A DNA stretch of 64,000 nucleotides, from positions 1,426,001 to 1,490,000 of the forward strand of contig NC_016457.1 in NCBI RefSeq assembly GCF_000226115.1, in the 5' to 3' direction. A program made the position numbers and the translations under genes. The notes below the pieces were generated by a model. The model saw nothing but the letters and a program-made list of their open reading frames with translations. It ran no database searches and was not told the DNA's origin. This stretch comes from Thermothielavioides terrestris NRRL 8126 (taxonomy: Eukaryota; Ascomycota; Sordariomycetes; Sordariales; Chaetomiaceae). This document shows positions 11,671 through 64,000 of this stretch, in pieces; position 1 is the stretch's first letter, and every line of letters begins with the position of its first letter.

Positions 11671-12072
11671 GCTAGAGGTTATAGAGGTCCCGCCAAGACT
11701 AATTTCGGCCAATTGTCGGCAATGTTTTTACAGCGTCAGTACCCCGCCAAGACCGCCAAGGGGTTTGCACTATCGCCACGGGTTAGCCACGGGTTAGTTC
11801 GCCGAGGGTACAGGGGGCGGCGCCAGCCCCCCGCTGGTTAGGATTCGGGTTAAGGTTAGGGTGAGGGTCAAGGTTAGGGTGCGGGTTAACTTCGTTTTCT
11901 TTTTTTTCGATTTGGTTGAGGTTTAGTAAAGTTGTTGCTACGAGTCTTCGCGATTGTATATTGTCGATGTTGCTCTAAGTCGTCGCGGCCCCGCTCACCC
12001 TGTGGCGATTGTAAATACTTGTAAGCGGCAACCTCCGAAATTAGTCTTGGCGGGACCTCTATAACCACGACC
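11671..12072. mobile_element. Short TIR element, copy 1 (Mutator-like, non-autonomous)
   Basis: A 402-bp non-coding element. Its ends carry a perfect 25-bp inverted repeat, GAGGTCCCGCCAAGACTAAT followed by TTCGG, and a weaker outer extension (GGTTATA on both sides). The direct repeat GGGAAAAG flanks it at 11663-11670 and 12073-12080 (8 bp, or 9 with one mismatch), in the size range of Mutator target-site duplications. The interior holds a degenerate telomere-like tract at about 11836-11890 (GGTTAGGGTGAGGGTC and variants). It is close to the second copy at 14970-15359 along its whole length. It encodes nothing and must have been moved in trans. The same termini bound the 6.2-kb element at 16582-22827. 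Confidence 0.85.
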
Positions 12073-14969: not shown

Positions 14970-15359
14970 GCTGGATCTTAAAGAGGTCCCGCCAAGACTA
15001 ATTTCGGCCAATTGTCGGCAATGTTTTTACAACGTCAGTACCCCGCCAAGACCGCCACGGGATTTGCACTATCGCCAAGGGTTAGTTCGCCGGGGGTACG
15101 GGGGGCGGCGCCAGCCCCCCGCTGGTTAGGGTGAGGGTTATGGTTAGGGTGAGGGTCAAGGTTAGGGTGCGGGTTAACTTCGTTTTCTTTTTTTCAATTT
15201 GGTTGAAGTTTCGCAAAGTTGTTACTACGAGTCTTTGCAATTCTTCGTTGTTGATATTGCTCGAAGTCGTAGCGACCCCGCTCCCTCGCGGCAATTTGTA
15301 AATACTTGTAAGCGGTAGGTTCCGAAATTAGTCTTGGCGGGACCTCTTTAAGAATAACC
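14970..15359. mobile_element. Short TIR element, copy 2 (Mutator-like, non-autonomous)
   Basis: A 390-bp element with the same perfect 25-bp terminal inverted repeat as copy 1 and the same internal order: GC-rich left part, degenerate telomere-like tract (about 15124-15178), then an AT-richer right part. The direct repeat GTGGGTAAT flanks it at 14961-14969 and 15360-15368. The following GC is also shared, so the repeat can be read as 9-11 bp. Differences from copy 1 are mostly transitions and small indels. It carries no coding sequence. Confidence 0.87.
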
Positions 15360-16573: not shown

Positions 16574-17099
16574 GAAGGGACGGTTATGGCTAAAGAGGTC
16601 CCGCTAAGCCTAATTTCCGGCCTTTGTCAACGCTACCCCCCTACCACAACTCGATATACTGTAGTAGTACTGGTAGGGGGTCTTCGCGTATATTCTAGGG
16701 TACAGTACGCTTAAAGGTAGGTAATAGCGCGCTTATACTACGGGCTAGCTATAGGCCATCGTCGTGTCTATACTATATTAGTTAAGTCCGCGTGGTAGGT
16801 GATATAACCTACCTTAGAGCTACTACCATCTTGCTATATAAGAATAGGTTATATATAGAGGCTATAGCTAGGCTAGGGAAGTATAAGACTATATTTGACC
16901 TAGGTAGAGCCTAGCTAGCTACTAGGTAGTAGCGGAAACGTATTAAAATAAAAGAATTGAACTTAAGTATCCGCTTTACCCTTATTTTTACCCTTATCCT
17001 TACTACCCTTTTTACCTTAAATTTCCCTATATTATACTAATTAGCTATTAGCTAGTTGCGAAGTAGAGGTATAGTACATTTATAATATTTTGTTTAATA

Positions 17100-18800
17100 T
17101 TTATAAGGTGCCTATATATTTAGGTTAGGGCTTTAGTATATCGCTTAGCTTCCTTTAGGGTATCTCGAGCTAGCTGGGCTGACTTCTTGGTAGCGGTGGC
17201 TAGCTACTTAGCAGCTATAGCTTAGCGCTCTGCTACTAGAGCGACTCTCTTTTTAATGCTTTGCTAGGGCTTAGCCCTAGCGAGTAAAAGGTAAGCTATA
17301 GAGGTGGTAGGAGCGTTAGACATAGGTATATCGGTACTAGCTAGGGGTGGGGTAGTAGCGGTCTCCTTGTATATTGTGCCTTTTAGTGCTAGTTAGTTGG
17401 GTATAAATATAAGGTAGCTATAGAGCTATATAGCTTACGAATGGTTATAACTAAATGCCTACTCTATACTTTAAGGTCGGTAGGTAGAGGCTCGTCTTTG
17501 TTGACTTTAAGGACTTGCTTATACTACTTAATAATCTTTAGCTGAATTATAGAAGGTGGCTACTAGTAGTTTATTAGCACTAGACTAGTAGTCGTTCGTT
17601 AGTTAATATTATTTATAAAAATATAGGACTTAGTATAGCCTTGCTTAGTATATTTCTAGTATATATTGCCTAGATCTATATACTAGTTAGCGAATATAAA
17701 CCTAATATATTAAAAAATATAATACTGTACTTACTCTCTTAGAAGTGGCAGGCTTATATATCTCTATTGTAGATATATATAATGTAGACTATATATAGTA
17801 CCGTCTATACTTTACTATAGTTAGGCTCCTCCTTTTTCTTCTTCTTCGCCTATCTAACGTTAGCTAGCTACTGACTAGTACCTAAATAGTACTCTTTATT
17901 GAAGACTTTGTATCTAAGGACTTAGCTAGGCGCTTTTAAGGGTTGTTGGGCGTGACTAGCTTAGACTTGCCCTTGTTGATAGGGGTAGCGGGGGCAGTAG
18001 GGGGGGCGGCTAGGGTAGGGGGGGCGGGGGGAGCGGGGGGAGCTAGCTATTTACTAGTAGCGTTCTTGCTATTGGTATTAGTGTTGGTAGTAGTAGTAGG
18101 CGCGAGATATATGTAGGAGCGTTGCTACTGTTAGCTAGGGGTAGCGGGGGCCAAGGGGGTAGGGGGGGCTAGCTACTTGCTAGTAGCGTCCTTGCTATTA
18201 GTGCTAGTGTTAGTGGTAGTAGTAGGCGTAGAATATACGGGATAGGTGTAGGAGTGCTACTACTACTAGCCGGGGGCGGTGGGAGGGGTGGCGGCTAGGG
18301 CGGGGGGGGGCGGCGGGAGCTAGCTACTTACTAATAGTGCTTTCGTTGGTAGTAGTGGTAGTAGTAGTGGTAGTGGGTATAGGGCGTGTAGGGCGTGTAG
18401 GGCGGGGCTAGAGGCGTTGCTACTATTGGTCGGGGGCGGTGGAAAGGTTGGTGGCGAAGGCTAGGGGGGTAGTGGGAGCTAGCTGCTTGCTAATAGCGGG
18501 AGCGTCGTTGTTGGTAGTAGTAGGGGGGTTGTTCTTCTTATATAGCTCTATATCGTTATATTTGAAGTTGCTATATAACTCAATTAGCTATTGCCAATTG
18601 TAATACTATCGTTACTACTACGATTTCGACTAATTTTTCAACTTAATCGACTTATAGAGCGTATAAAAAGTGTAGATTGAAGCTATAATATAGCTAATTA
18701 GCTTTTTAGCGATAGCGATGATGGAAATAGCTTTAAATCAACTTATATAATAGTAGCGTATATAGGTAGGTAGATAGCAATGGCTATAGCTACAAGGTTG
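17100..18800 (-). pseudogene. Second decayed frame of the Mutator-like element
   Basis: Downstream of the transposase on the same strand, one frame reads through RIP-type stops as a hydrophobic/Tyr-rich start (KKLISYIIASIY), then KNNPPTTTNN, then repeated Pro/Thr/Ala-rich units containing forms of PAISKQLAP. Nearer the element end, a Lys-rich helical stretch (ARDTLKEAKRYTKALT) lies in a possibly different frame at about 17130-17300. I do not recognise the product. It may be the disordered C-terminal part of the transposase, a second protein, or a nested element. Exact limits and frame joins are uncertain. Confidence 0.4.
17960..18540. repeat. G-rich degenerate minisatellite inside the element
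   Basis: Four imperfect units of about 130-157 bp, marked by GAGCTAGCTAYTTRCTARTAG-like sequence at about 18048, 18167, 18317 and 18476. Each is followed by a GTAGTAGTAGG-type run and a block of G-runs such as GGGGGGCGGG. On the minus strand the units read as Pro/Thr/Ala-rich protein repeats. The G-runs contrast with the AT-rich surroundings, probably because CpC and GpG are poor RIP targets. Confidence 0.7.
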
Positions 18801-19384
18801 GAAGAAGGAAAGGAAGAAGAAGTGGGTAGAGGGCTCTAGGGTAGTAGAAAAAGGTGTAGCCTATATACCTATATAGTTCTTAAAGAATCGAAGGTTTTAA
18901 TATTAATTGTATAAAGTAAACATTGTTTATTTTTTAGAATTATCTAACTACGAAGTATCTAGACTAGTAGTAGAAAAGTAGTTGGCTAGTACCTCCTTCG
19001 TATTTATATTCCTTCTTTGGTTTCTCTATAAAGCTAAGCTTAGAGGTTAGGATAAAATTTCTATTTGTCTATAATTTTATATAGTGTTGAGCCCTCTTTT
19101 AGAAACTTCGATCAACTCTATAAAGTTCGTCTAGGGGCTAAGACTTAGACCATTGGCAATACTTACTATATTTTAGTATTATAGAAACTCCTTTCTAAGC
19201 ATGTTAATTAGCTAGGAACCAAGCAACTCGTTTATAGTCTAGTAGTTAGCTAGCTACTAATCCTTTAACTTTTAGCTATCAATTATTACGAAGTTCCTTG
19301 AAGTTGAAGGCAATATTAGGGATATAAAGTAGTATAGTCTAGCGGCTAGCTAGTACTTAACTAGAGAACGATATATTGCTATTT

Positions 19385-21820
19385 ATTACTAAGATATAAA
19401 CAAAGGAATATCTAACCCCTAAATCCATTGTAGATCCTTCTAAACCTTGCCTAATAGCTTCTCTAGAATATAGTCGAGATCCTTTTATAAGCTATATATT
19501 GCTTATACGTTATCTTAGATCCTATATATCGTGGTTTATAGCAATTGTATTAGCTCCTAGACCTATAGGAATAGGTACTATATAACAGAGACCTTGTCTA
19601 AGCTAGTGAGATTTGTTGGCGGTAGAACGACGTTGTAGTATATCCTAAACCCTTTCGCTTCTAAGATACTAACTAGCTATTGGAAGTGCTCTAGCTATAA
19701 CGAGTTCGTTAATAAGTGATAATGCTAGATATATAAGTAGAGGAGCAACTAGCTTCTGAACCATTTACACCTATAGTGAGAGATGCCAACTAGCTTTGGA
19801 ATTGGGGTATCCTATAAGAGCTAAGCCACTTAATCCGCCTAGTTGACTACGTTGTAATAGTCTAGGTTATAGCGTTCATCTAGAGTAGCCTACCTAAGTG
19901 TAGAGACCTTAGTAGCAATGTTAGCAGTACCTTAGGTAGTTAGCTATAGTAGTTGGATAGCTGCTAGACCGCTCTACTATTGCCTATTGTTGTACTATAG
20001 ACTAGGGAACTAGTCCGGTATAAAAACGCTATTAAAGTCGAGAAGCTCGTTGGTATCGAACTGTTTACGAGCTATCGATAGCTTATATATAATTAGTGCT
20101 TAAGCCCGTTTAGGTAGCCTATTGAAGCCCTAGCCGTTAAACTGCTCTATATATATAGCTAGAAGTATATAATTGAGACTCCTAAACTTAGCCTAGATCG
20201 CCTTGTTTCAATAGTTTTATATACAGTGATCAAGGTAAATGATTAAACTAGCAAAGGGGAAGGTGCTAGGTATTTGCTACTTTAGTATAGGCTTAGTGTT
20301 CTTGACCTTTAAGTACTATCCTTCGACTATATTTGTTATAGTGATTTAGTAGAGTAGGGGGATTAGGTCTTGTACCTAATACGCTTATAGTCGAGTATTG
20401 TTTAGCTAGTTGTTCTTTAAATATTGTTTAAGCCTGTTGATGCTAGTGTAAACAATAGTAGCTTTAATAGACTCTATATAGCCTTTTTCTGAACGACGGC
20501 TTAGAAGAGTAGTCGCTATATAGCTAAGGTACTCCTTGTTAATACTAATCTAACGCTTCAAAGTCTTCTAGCAATGCTTTATATAGAGGAGATATTGTAT
20601 ATATAGGAGGCTATGCTTATTATAGCTAAATGCCTTCTAGATAGTAAGTTATTTGGCTATAGAGTCGTCGGTAATTATATATTTTAGGAGCTAGCCTTTA
20701 TTAGCTACTTCCCTACACTACTCTAGTAGTATACCTAGGTATATTGTAATACTATTAATAGTCTACCTCTTTATAAAGAAGTAAGTAGAAGGGAGCTAGT
20801 AGCCATTGAAGTCCTAAACTATAATTGTAAATAGGTGCTAATCGCTATAGGTAGTTTTATAAGTAGTATCTATAATCGCTAGTTAGCTATACTTTTTCAG
20901 TGTATCTAATAGGTCTCTATATATAAAGACTAACGTAGAGGAGTTCTCGCTAGGTATAGTCAATGCCTTGTACTTGTACCGATCACTGTAGGCTAGTAGC
21001 TAGGTAATAGCTTCTACGAATTTTGCTTCTCTAAAAACCTTGTAGGACTATACTTTATAAGTATTATATTTACTAAGCTTAAGAGACCTACGAAGGTTGT
21101 AAATCTCTTTAGTTATAATGTGTTGGCCACCTATACTATAAAGATGTGCCTTAGCCTTAGGGGTTTCGGTATAGCTATATAGCTAGTATTCTACTACTCT
21201 ATTGCTATATCTAGTAGAGAGGAGGTAGGCGATATACTTTATAATAGTATATAGGCGTTTAATTATCTCGATGTTTTCTATCGAGTGATTATAGCTATAA
21301 CGAATTGAGATATTAACGGTACTATCGTTGTACTAAACCTTATAGAGAGTATAGTAGTATAGCTCTATATTCCGTAGCGTCCTATTACGTTTGCCTTGCC
21401 CTTTAGTCTTTTATAGCATTTTCTAAAGACAATAGCGAAATATAGTCTTTATTTAGTATTACCTTAGAGCGTCTCTCTAGCTATAGAAGTGCGATACCTA
21501 GCGCTATTTAGCTTGCTAGACTATATATAGGAGGGTAAACTCGCCTTCTTTGAACTAGTGTTCCTAGATCTCTAGAATATTGTTGGGAATTGTAAGGCCA
21601 CTATTTGGCGCTTTAGGCTCTAGTTTAGATAAGCGAATTAGGGATATATATTTATACCTATATCTAGAAGCTAGTTCCTCTATTGAGGAGCTATCTCCTT
21701 TATTAGATAGTGTAGAGCTGTTTAGTAGTTGGGTAGAAGCTAGAGCAGGACTTGGAAAGCCGTTCGATTGTAATGATCGTAGGATTAGGGGCTTTAGATT
21801 AGGGAGGAGCTATAGTAGTA
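19385..21820 (-). pseudogene. MULE-type transposase, inactivated by RIP
   Basis: One minus-strand frame stays in register for about 2.4 kb (about 810 codons) although broken by dozens of stops, mostly TAG and TAA with an occasional TGA. Readable pieces in order: an N-terminal part with KTKGQGKRNRTLRNIEL; a segment with KEIYNLRRSLKLSKYNTYK; then ENSSTLVFIYRDLLDTLKKYS followed by the catalytic-type IIDTTYKTTYSD (first Asp codon at 20868-20870), FTIIV and DFNGY; then IITDDSIAK (about 20661-20678), 67 codons from the first Asp. This arrangement matches the MULE transposase domain (PF10551 type) found in Mutator and FAR1-related transposases. The stops fit C-to-T change at CAG/CAA and G-to-A at TGG. 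It cannot make a protein now. The N-terminal end is a guess. Confidence 0.75.
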
Positions 21821-21999
21821 CCTACTAAGTAGCTAGATTAAGGCCGAGCTCGATAGATAGATGTTCTAGGACTAGGGAGCTCGCTATAGGTATAGTATTA
21901 GTAATTCAATGCTAATGATCAAATTAAGCATTAGACTAAATGGCACTTATATATTGAGGGGGACTAAGGGCGCTAGTAGGCTATGAATACTACGTTGTT

Positions 22000-22560
22000 T
22001 TATTGCTAGCTATATAGCGTGTTGTTTTGTTGCTAGCTATATAGTGTATCGATTTGTTGCTAACTGTACAAAGTAAGCTAGTCTATAACAGGATGCTAGT
22101 CTATAGTTAGATCAATGCTTAGCAACTGCTAATAGGTAGGCGATAAAACAATTTACTTAGTATATCTTTAGGTTGCTAGCTATATAGTACATCGTTTTAC
22201 TGTTAGCCCTATAGCACGTCGTTTTGCTATTAGTTGTATAGCACGTCGTTTTACTGCTAGCTCTATAATATATCGTTTTACTACTAGCTGTATAGTGTGT
22301 TGTTTTATTACTAGCTATACGGTATATCGTTTTGCTACTAACTATATAAAGCAAGCTAGTTTATAGCTAGATCAATGTTTAGCAACTGCTAATCGGTAGA
22401 TAGTAAAATAATTTACTAAGTATATCTTCTAGTTATTAGCTATATAGCGTAAGTTGGTCTATAGTGGGATACTAGTTGGTAGCTAGATAAATGCTTAGCA
22501 ACTGCTAATATACTAGTAGTAAACCAATTTACTAATAGGATTTATTGGATATAGGCTAAA
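22000..22560. repeat. 27-bp tandem repeats within a larger ~260-bp repeat
   Basis: Between about 22180 and 22350, six or seven consecutive 27-bp units of the form CGTTTTACTGCTAGCTNTAT follow one another, each diverged. A larger unit containing GCTTAGCAACTGCTAAT recurs at about 22113, 22377 and 22495. Because 27 is a multiple of three, the array reads as nine-residue repeats on the minus strand, but I see no sign that it codes. It lies near the right terminus of the large element, where subterminal repeats that bind transposase are often found. Confidence 0.65.
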
Positions 22561-22835
22561 TACGTAGTTTCATAGCGATACAACGTCGTGATATAGGTCT
22601 AAGTAGAATAGAGGGTTGGTATAGACGCGGATTGGTTAGGGAAATATAGGTAGGATGTACGTAGATGTAAACTAGCGGCTAGGCAGCCGCTAGCGCGACG
22701 TAGGCGTAAGGACCACCGCGTTGAAATTGTTAAGCGGCGGCAAAAGGAGTTACTTCTAAGCGTAGTGGCCATGGTATCTGTAGGGACATTGGAAATTGGT
22801 CTTGGCGGGACCTCTTTAGCCATCAGCGAAGGGAC

Positions 22836-61944: not shown

Positions 61945-62439
61945 GCGTGGTTGGAGGGTGTGATGAGGGACGTGGGATACAAGGTGTTGTTGATAGAGCT
62001 GGGCTGGGTGTTGGAGTCATAACCATCATAAAATACAATACACTGCGGGTTGGCGGCGGGTTGGCGGCGTTTGGATAACTGATGGTTGTCTCTGTTCTCC
62101 TATGCGGAAACATATTCAGCCGGCCAGGGGTAGCAGTTTTGTGCGAGTTCCATCGACAGAGGCAAAACAAATCCCCAATGATCTAGAGACATTCTATTCT
62201 CATTTCCCTGCGTGTTCTGCTTCCAACTCCAGAAGAAAGCTCGATGGTGATGCTCATCTCTTAGTGGCTAGTCTTATAAGTACATGCGCTAACGATAGCC
62301 CGCGCCGTTCCGTTCCATAACCGGCCCCACCATCCATCCAGCCGGGCCACGGAAAGCGGATTCATCTCATATCACGTCAGGGGTAAGGGGCTCAGAGCTT
62401 GGCACAGCGCACTGGCCATGGCTTCCCCACTCCTGGATA
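61945..62439. other. HIS3 3' flank up to the retrotransposon
   Basis: About 0.5 kb of ordinary DNA. The left end of the retrotransposon LTR probably falls in the last ~80 bases, but without a second LTR copy I cannot place it. Confidence 0.45.
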
Positions 62440-64000
62440 TATATATACCACGCTCTGTTCAATCTTTAGCTCTCCTTTGTACTAGAACAACGCACTCTCT
62501 CTTTACATTCCGATGCTCTACTACAATCCCACTGTTATATCTACACCTCGTAGCTCGCTATAGTATATCAGTTATAAGCCTAAGCGCTCTATAATTGTAT
62601 ATAGCTAGTAACCTATAGTAAGCTCTCTCTCTCTCTCTCCTTTTTTTATACTCTATACCTCAATATAACAACTATCGAGAGTAGCTCAACTATTATACTC
62701 TAGTCCTATGTAGATTGGACTAAGTAGTTTATAGAGCTTAAGCTTATAGCTACGAGCAATAGTATCTAGGACAAATGTAATCTAGATACTCTCGACGAGC
62801 TTTAGAATAAGCGACTGAAAGTTCCTTTAGAGGATAAAGTAGTCGAAGAGCTTTGTAAGAAGCGTGTTAAGGAATTAAATGTCCTTATAGGCTAAGCCCT
62901 AGCTCCTACTAAACAAAAGGTTACTACTAAGCTCGAAGCTATATATAAGGAATATCTTATATTTATAGCTATCTAGGAGAGTAGAATAAAGTTATATTTG
63001 TTTATCCTCTAGTAGATTATACACTCTATTTACCAACCTTTATTTAATGCTATATATATTATTATTTTAAACGCTAGACTTAGTAGTCTTTAAGCTCTTA
63101 TTTATAAGCTCTATAAATAGCTTACGCCCTTTGACACTCTTATTGAAGATTTAGCTATTTGACAATATATAATGGTACTATAAAAGGTGTATAGAGTAGG
63201 TGTCAACTTACGTAAATGGTACTACTTTTAGAATAAGGTGTACCTATATATAAAGAGCTTCGATATCCCTAAAGTAGTTGGACCTAGAGTATTTAAATAC
63301 CTTATCGAGGTAGTTGGTTACTAGATTACCCTAGACTAGGTTTGTTATTAGCTCTTTAAGATCAAGGTACTTAAGGCCTAGGGGCGTCCGATTCCTATTT
63401 TCAAAGAGCTAGGTGCTCGCCTTAGTATTTAGATCGACAATACTGCTACTAAAGGGCTTAGCTATAGTATATTTACCTCTTTAGGAGTAGCTTAAAGCAA
63501 TAGTTCTATAGATAGTATAGGCTCTTATAGCTCGAGGCTCTACTTATACCCTTATAAAGCTAATAGCAAATATAGGTAGAAGCTAGTAGAGTACTAGTTT
63601 CTTTAGATAGTAATCACTAGAGTAGAGAAGGGCCGCTATAAGCTTTTAGAAATATAGATTACTAAGATTAGGGAGCGCTTTAATGAACTAAAGTAGAATT
63701 CCCTTTAGAAGAGCCTCTAAAAGCGGTATAGCTCTAGCTATATAGAGTAGAGGAACTCTAGGTTAGCTTCTTTTAACAAGGTCGTCTATACTATTATCGA
63801 CCTAAGCCTCCTAGGCAAAGGAGCTTACTACTCGCTTATATTCTCAACTACTATTATCTACTAGCTCTTTTAAAGTATTCTCTTTAACAACTGTATTGCT
63901 TTATATATTGTCAACGATAAGAAGCTCCTAGTTCCTAGTACCTTTATACTATTAGGAGATAGTGACTATATAGAAGTAGATACTACTACTTTTCCTATTT
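62440..64000 (+). mobile_element. RIP-degraded Copia-type LTR retrotransposon, 5' part
   Basis: From about 62440 the sequence turns TpA-rich with almost no CpA or TpG. A GATATATATATACC box at about 62437-62450 followed by a pyrimidine-rich stretch fits an LTR promoter. From 62701 to the window end, one plus-strand frame stays in register for 433 codons. It is broken only by stops, mostly TAG/TAA, of the kind RIP makes. The element runs past 64000; its pol part and 3' LTR are not visible. LTR limits and primer-binding site could not be fixed. Confidence 0.7.
62701..64000 (+). pseudogene. Gag (and start of Pol) of the Copia-type element, inactivated
   Basis: Readable pieces include an N-terminal gag-like part with TKQFIELKLIATSNSI-type sequence (one stop inside), the charged segment KVPLEDKVVEELCKKRVKEL, and near the right edge LYIVNDKKLLVPSTF. 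The last piece sits where the HVxND block of Copia proteases is expected. Assignment rests on this order and on the length of the preserved frame. It makes no protein in its present state and is cut by the window end. Confidence 0.55.

What the first reader, a model, noticed from the sequence alone, without database searches (positions are those of the whole stretch)
16574..22835. Complete Mutator-like element with target duplication, erased by RIP
Matching termini ending in the same AAAGAGGTCCCGC core, an exact 8-bp duplication GAAGGGAC outside them, and a single transposase-like frame inside define one 6.2-kb insertion. Fungal Mutator-like elements with such short termini are far less described than Fot1/Tc1 types. 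The element is much larger than one transposase needs, and about 3 kb outside the transposase is unexplained.
Basis: partly seen in the sequence, partly recalled or inferred. Interest (0 to 1): 0.75.

Follow-up and report, generated by a model that had tools for sequence, protein, structure and literature searches.

The report
Mutation-silenced fungal Mutator transposon with miniatures
This is one of about thirty copies of a fungal jumping gene that a genome defence has riddled with stop codons; short elements with the same ends number in the hundreds and those examined are less damaged, so it is a clear example of a known kind with some unusual details.

Summary
The element is 16582-22827 (6,246 bp) with an exact 8-bp duplication (GAAGGGAC) and imperfect inverted ends (32 of 37 match). 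With stops read through, a minus-strand frame scores above Pfam's cut-off for the MULE transposase domain; 13 of 13 copies scanned match at E<=1. The host genome (36.9 Mb, 6 contigs) holds about 30 large copies. Of 26 whose ends I compared, 17 have exact 8-bp duplications, 6 differ by 1-2 transitions, 3 do not match. Fourteen copies differ by 12.6% transitions on average but 0-1.7% transversions: a young burst, then RIP. All 41 transposase matches carry stops. 'Single frame' needs correcting: a second minus-strand coding region (about 17000-18700) probably explains much of the rest. Four end classes, shared by large and short elements, each carry (nearly) the same 3-base signature at both ends. 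New family of a known kind.

The parts
16574..16581 (.). left target-site duplication GAAGGGAC
   Evidence: 17 of 26 copies have exact 8-bp duplications
16582..16618 (+). left terminal inverted repeat, class A end (GGTTATGGC)
   Evidence: 32 of 37 bases match the right end; shared with other copies
17000..18700 (-). second coding region (approximate limits): low-complexity Thr/Asn/Pro repeats, then a charged C-terminal part; in this copy shifted by one extra base near 18302
   Evidence: same frame in 11 copies aligned; 12 of 15 indel events between 16979 and 18604 are multiples of three, limits chosen after seeing them (binomial); no Pfam family over cut-off in 4 copies scanned
18970..21929 (-). 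transposase coding region (stretch tested, true ends not fixed), broken by stop codons
   Evidence: three indel events in 13 other copies: +12, +6 and a single +1 in one copy; genome search with its 19700-21899 part: 27 of 41 matches span the query, 48-64 stops each
20613..20876 (-). MULE transposase domain PF10551
   Evidence: 32.2 bits against a cut-off of 27.6; PF21056 (ZSWIM1-3 RNaseH-like) overlaps it at 25.5 bits, below its cut-off of 27.2
21930..22790 (.). right non-coding arm with 27-bp subterminal repeats whose number varies between copies
22791..22827 (-). right terminal inverted repeat, class A end (GCTGATGGC)
22828..22835 (.). right target-site duplication GAAGGGAC
14970..15359 (+). 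MITE of the same family, 390 bp, telomere-like core
   Evidence: flanking 8-mers agree only with a one-base offset
11671..12072 (+). MITE of the same family, 402 bp, class C ends (TATAGAG variant)
   Evidence: exact 8-bp duplication

Best explanation
A cut-and-paste DNA transposon of the Mutator-like (MULE) superfamily. Its transposase (minus strand, about 18970-21929) presumably bound the terminal and subterminal repeats and inserted the element with an 8-bp staggered cut. A second coding region downstream on the same strand (about 17000-18700) was probably a second gene of the autonomous element. The family burst to about 30 large copies. RIP then mutated C to T (and G to A) in every large copy examined, putting dozens of stops into each full-length transposase. 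Short elements with the same ends (382-439 bp in the 21 read) were moved by the same machinery to at least 344 places and were hit less, perhaps because they are short. Shown: ends, duplications, copies, MULE domain, mutation pattern, stops, MITE counts. Inferred: binding, the cut, role of the second region, order of burst and RIP, mobilisation of MITEs by this transposase, length as the reason for their milder damage.
For: PF10551 above cut-off in the window frame and at E<=1 in 13 of 13 copies scanned; 17 of 26 copies with exact 8-bp duplications, 6 with 1-2 transition differences; among 14 large copies (91 pairs) transitions average 12.6% (11.0-14.5) and transversions 0.6% (0-1.7), ratio 21; variable columns 2,405 transition-type against 214 others; 41 of 41 transposase matches and 14 of 14 MULE-domain matches in the genome contain stops; of 21 MITEs, 15 have exact 8-bp duplications, and they carry the same end classes as the large copies; MITE transition/transversion ratio 1.69, and three MITEs at different sites differ by 0-1 base.
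Against: The domain score is modest (30.9-32.2 bits against 27.6). No homologous protein at E<=0.001 came back from the large protein database for either region. 3 of 26 copies have non-matching flanks. Among still-variable transition columns, CpA context makes up 628 of 2,405, fewer than CpT (852) and about as many as CpG (631); I read this as saturation of CpA but did not prove it. MITEs are not wholly spared: four of 21 (L048, L049, L051, L061) differ from each other by 19-22 transitions and 0-2 transversions, and MITE dinucleotide indices are shifted too. Catalytic residues and a zinc finger were not established.
Confidence: 0.93

Rival explanations
1. A hAT or KDZ (Kyakuja/Dileera/Zisupton) element, superfamilies that also make 8-bp duplications (recalled).
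For: 8-bp duplications; short imperfect inverted repeats.
Against: Pfam reports MULE above cut-off and lists no hAT or KDZ domain in any of six read-through frames at E<=1; PMC6446971 gives 8-11 bp for MULEs (passages).
Confidence: 0.03
2. The low G+C and stops reflect age and ordinary decay, not RIP.
For: Residual transition variation is not concentrated at CpA.
Against: Transversions are 0-1.7% while transitions average 12.6%, and only one indel that is not a multiple of three lies in the 2,960-bp transposase stretch of 13 other copies; decay would add transversions and indels.
Confidence: 0.03
3. The region 17000-18700 is not a second gene but a continuation or exon of the transposase, or non-coding repeats.
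For: Same strand; in the window its first part lies in the same frame as the transposase (one translation, runs through both); low-complexity; no Pfam family over cut-off in 4 copies; 4 of the 12 triplet indels sit in a trinucleotide run.
Against: 10 of 13 other copies carry a single extra base at 18937 between the two, which puts them in different frames, yet those copies had multiplied; 8 of 11 indel events outside the trinucleotide run are multiples of three (P about 0.009, region chosen afterwards).
Confidence: 0.3

Closest known systems
Hop group MULEs of ascomycetes (Hop, MULE-Cglob, fungal subgroup; PMC6446971, passages)
   Same: MULE superfamily (8-11 bp duplications), some fungal members with 1 or 2 frames
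   Different: listed inverted repeats 51-99 bp (here 37); their CCHC zinc finger was not found here (six frames); no phylogeny could be built
Mutyl of Yarrowia lipolytica (PMC6446971, passages)
   Same: two frames; short 22-bp inverted repeats; the text says mutB has a DNA-binding role and lies in the transposase's orientation (the paper's table says antisense)
VdMULE1-3 of Verticillium dahliae (PMC3441728, passages)
   Same: PF10551; an 8-bp duplication in one element; subterminal direct repeats; terminal consensus GGNAA (here ends begin GG or GC)
   Different: 3.4-3.6 kb, single frame; inverted repeats 73-86 bp in its Table 1, 86, 82 and 53 bp in its text
MITEs of Zymoseptoria tritici (PMC9970103, passages)
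   Same: small elements less affected by RIP than large families
   Different: other families; no MULE partner or telomere-like core in the passages seen

Membership tests
Mutator-like elements (MULE) | transposase with MULE (PF10551) domain | tested here: met
   above the curated cut-off in the window frame; 13 of 13 copies match at E<=1
Mutator-like elements (MULE) | 8-11 bp target-site duplication | tested here: met
   17 exact, 6 near, 3 not, of 26 copies
Mutator-like elements (MULE) | terminal inverted repeats (often long, may be short or absent) | tested here: met
   32 of 37 bases; short for the superfamily
Mutator-like elements (MULE) | DDE catalytic residues in register | not tested
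   no alignment to known triads or structure was made
Hop group | transposase clusters with Hop in a tree | not tested
   no fungal relatives in hand; database searches gave no homologue at E<=0.001
RIP-inactivated repeat | C-to-T/G-to-A transitions in repeats, shifted dinucleotide indices | tested here: met
RIP-inactivated repeat | preference for CpA | tested here: inconclusive
   indices show CpA depletion, but of variable transition columns only 628 of 2,405 are in CpA context
MITE of this MULE | same ends and duplication length, many copies | tested here: met
   344 pairs of exact cores by pattern; of 21 read, 15 exact 8-bp duplications, 1 with one mismatch, 4 offset by one base, 1 unmatched
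MITE of this MULE | no coding capacity | not tested
   frames of the MITEs were not scanned
KDZ or hAT | their transposase domain | tested here: not met
   no such family listed at E<=1 in six read-through frames

The most novel reading that the evidence does not exclude
The family carries an 'end code': four lineages of large elements, separable by transversions alone, each have their own 3-base signature (GGC, CGT, GGT, YCT) just outside the conserved core, (nearly) the same at both ends although the outer 6 bases of the two ends differ, and MITEs repeat these signatures. The two ends would have changed together with the transposase, so that each lineage moves its own MITEs. The MITEs spread a telomere-like array of up to nine hexamers through the genome and outlast a defence that left no intact autonomous copy in the searches made. 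(Probability lowered from 0.3 to 0.25 on re-check, because sparing of MITEs proved weaker than first computed.)
Probability: 0.25. Interest if true: 0.55.

Novelty: new member of a known kind. Interest (0 to 1): 0.4.

Why it matters
One genome holds both the killed large copies and hundreds of short elements with the same ends, so it is a natural test of how repeat length decides the outcome of RIP. The near absence of transversions between some copies suggests that RIP followed soon after a burst. The matched end signatures offer a handle on how MULE transposases recognise their own ends (my judgement, not from a paper read here).

Tried and rejected
Homologue searches in the large protein database with both regions gave nothing at E<=0.001 among 7,995 and 7,987 scored candidates; the query words come from mutated sequence and the database may hold few fungal proteins, so this is no evidence of novelty. 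Long spans between ends (13 to 36 kb, 8 copies) looked like giant elements: 5 have exact 8-mers outside, 2 one mismatch, 1 does not match; in the 6 of these compared the break lies at different places and two inserts are shared by three copies each, so they are nested insertions. Weak Pfam hits below cut-off (Vps3844_C, MHYT, Surface_antigen, HemolysinCabind, DUF2408 and others) were dropped; ISPD_C matched 9 of 13 transposase copies with best E 0.001 and was not pursued. An error found on re-check: three of 21 MITEs (L048, L051, L058) had been put in the wrong orientation; one search corrects the MITE ratio from 1.29 to 1.69 and shows a RIP-marked group of four. The MITE identity profile is not used. 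Papers: the listings show no title or abstract start that names this family; passages only were read, of PMC3599309, PMC6446971, PMC9970103, PMC3441728 and PMC4522978. No structure prediction was run: an alignment would have held loci outside the tool's stated list.

Full report
What is there. The window (G000:C1:1426001-1490000) holds an insertion of 6,246 bp at 16582-22827. Both flanks carry GAAGGGAC. The two ends match at 32 of 37 positions. Inside, G+C is 0.38 and the RIP indices are far from those of the flanks.

What it encodes. Reading stops through, the minus frame that starts at 22826 matches PF10551, the MULE transposase domain, at E=3.9e-7 and above the curated cut-off; no other of the six frames gives a domain above cut-off. 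The 2,960-bp stretch 18970-21929 has three indel events relative to the window in 13 other copies: +12, +6 and a single +1 in one copy. I aligned 13 of the 14 copies that have both ends (L025, with the extra base, left out); 13 of 13 match PF10551 and PF21056 at E<=1. This is what a once-intact long frame looks like after damage almost wholly by substitution.

A second coding region. Between about 17000 and 18700, same strand, another frame runs through 11 copies (left out were L023 and L032, which have frame shifts, and the window, which has an extra base near 18302). Twelve of 15 indel events between 16979 and 18604 are multiples of three (P about 3e-4); leaving out a trinucleotide run, 8 of 11 (P about 0.009). 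I chose these limits after seeing the indels, so the P values are generous. It is rich in Thr, Asn and Pro, repeated, with a charged C-terminal half. No Pfam family is over cut-off in the 4 copies scanned. In the window its beginning lies in the same frame as the transposase; in 10 of 13 other copies one extra base at 18937 separates the frames. So a second gene is likely but a continuation of the first is not excluded. Second frames are known in MULEs: mudrB, mutB of Mutyl, vanB and vanC (PMC6446971, passages). A DNA-binding or helper role like mutB's is my guess.

Copies. The genome search with the left 1,419 bp gave 30 matches of at least 1,380 bp that start at query base 1-10, the window included (only 40 of 100 candidates were scored). 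Fourteen copies have both ends within the stretch held: 10 have exact 8-bp duplications, 2 one mismatch, 2 none. Twelve further pairs of ends gave 7 exact, 4 with 1-2 transitions and 1 unmatched. In all 17, 6 and 3 of 26, that is 25 of the 30 plus one copy whose left part is split; the other 5 of the 30 were not examined.

RIP and age. Among 14 large copies (91 pairs, first 5,300 alignment columns) transitions average 12.6% (11.0-14.5) and transversions 0.6% (0-1.7) (totals 60,213 and 2,834). Window and L024 differ by 12.5% transitions and 0.02% transversions. Variable columns are 2,405 transition-type against 214 other. By context, both strands together, these are CpT 852, CpG 631, CpA 628, CpC 292: not the CpA excess expected of fresh RIP. 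CpA may already be saturated, which fits the depleted index but was not proved. All 41 transposase matches in the genome contain stops; the 27 that span the whole query carry 48 to 64 each. All 14 MULE-domain matches, some of them evidently from other MULE lineages with higher scores, contain stops. No intact autonomous copy was found within these searches.

MITEs. The 18-base core occurs 429 times forward and 421 reverse, control 0. Pairs of exact 14-base cores spanning 344-405 bp number 190+154=344; these are counted by pattern, not all read. Of 21 read (19 from the first 1.06 Mb of contig 1, 2 in the window; 382-439 bp), 15 have exact 8-bp duplications, 1 has one mismatch, 4 agree only with a one-base offset, 1 (L051) does not. 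With orientation corrected, their transition/transversion ratio is 1.69, against 21 in the large copies. L043 and L055 are identical and L056 differs by one base, at different sites, so movement was recent. But L048, L049, L051 and L061 differ from each other by 19-22 transitions and 0-2 transversions, and MITE dinucleotide indices are shifted: RIP, or something like it, does reach some of them. PMC9970103 (passages) states that RIP is weaker below about 500 bp and almost absent below about 200 bp; partial damage at 382-439 bp fits that.

Telomere-like core. Sixteen of 21 MITEs hold TTAGGG at least once and 5 do not; 4 of 21 have nine consecutive hexamers beginning GGT and 11 of 21 have at least four, against a maximum of 3 for any triplet in 500 shuffles of one MITE. 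Contig 1 starts with CCCTAA repeats, so the motif resembles this fungus's telomere repeat. Whether it does anything is unknown; descent from an old telomeric insertion would suffice.

End classes. Bases 7-9 of the ends agree between left and right in 21 of 26 large copies (permutation mean 10.3, 0 of 10,000 reach 21) and 19 of 21 MITEs (mean 7.5, 0 of 10,000); all 7 exceptions are C/T or G/A differences. Copies share ancestry, so these permutations overstate significance; the independent count is four classes, one of which (D) rests on a single large copy, with CCT against TCT, and whose MITEs differ from it in the outer bases of one end. Transversion distances: within A 0.0002-0.0017, within B 0-0.0050, A to B 0.0078-0.0094, either to D 0.015-0.017; in a shorter stretch class C copies lie 0.4-0.7 per kb from each other and 3.8-13.9 per kb from the rest.

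Verdict. An ordinary kind of thing, unusually well preserved as a system: a new fungal MULE family, probably with two genes, killed by RIP, with milder-hit MITEs.

Noticed in passing
L033 (fetched orientation) about 459-916: A MITE and the large copy beside it carry each other's flanking 8-mers in inverted order (one-base offset on one side), as if the roughly 52 bp between them had been flipped.
   Followed up: partly
L070 25-2414: Four complete MITEs head-to-tail, 396 bp apart with about 5 bp between them, next to a fifth in the other orientation and parts of others.
   Followed up: partly
L071: A 2.7-kb element with MITE ends and an exact 8-bp duplication GAAAGCTG, most of it unlike the MITEs or the large element.
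   Followed up: no
G000:C1:4927052-4929754 and G000:C2:6618948-6621650: Fragments of the element with identical scores at two places, suggesting a recent segmental duplication or an assembly effect.
   Followed up: no
L026, L027, L033, L034, L036, L040: In 6 of the 20 large-copy loci a MITE end lies within about 220 bp of the large element (in L036 the large copy may sit inside a MITE); not tested against chance.
   Followed up: no
G000:C1:9768026-9768319 and other rows: MULE-domain matches scoring up to 66.8 bits outside the copies of this family, also with stops: other dead MULE lineages.
   Followed up: no
window 62001-64000: Another stretch with RIP-like composition (G+C 0.38, TA/AT 1.67).
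   Followed up: no
window 18302: The window copy has one extra base in a G run relative to 13 of 13 other copies, shifting the second frame.
   Followed up: yes
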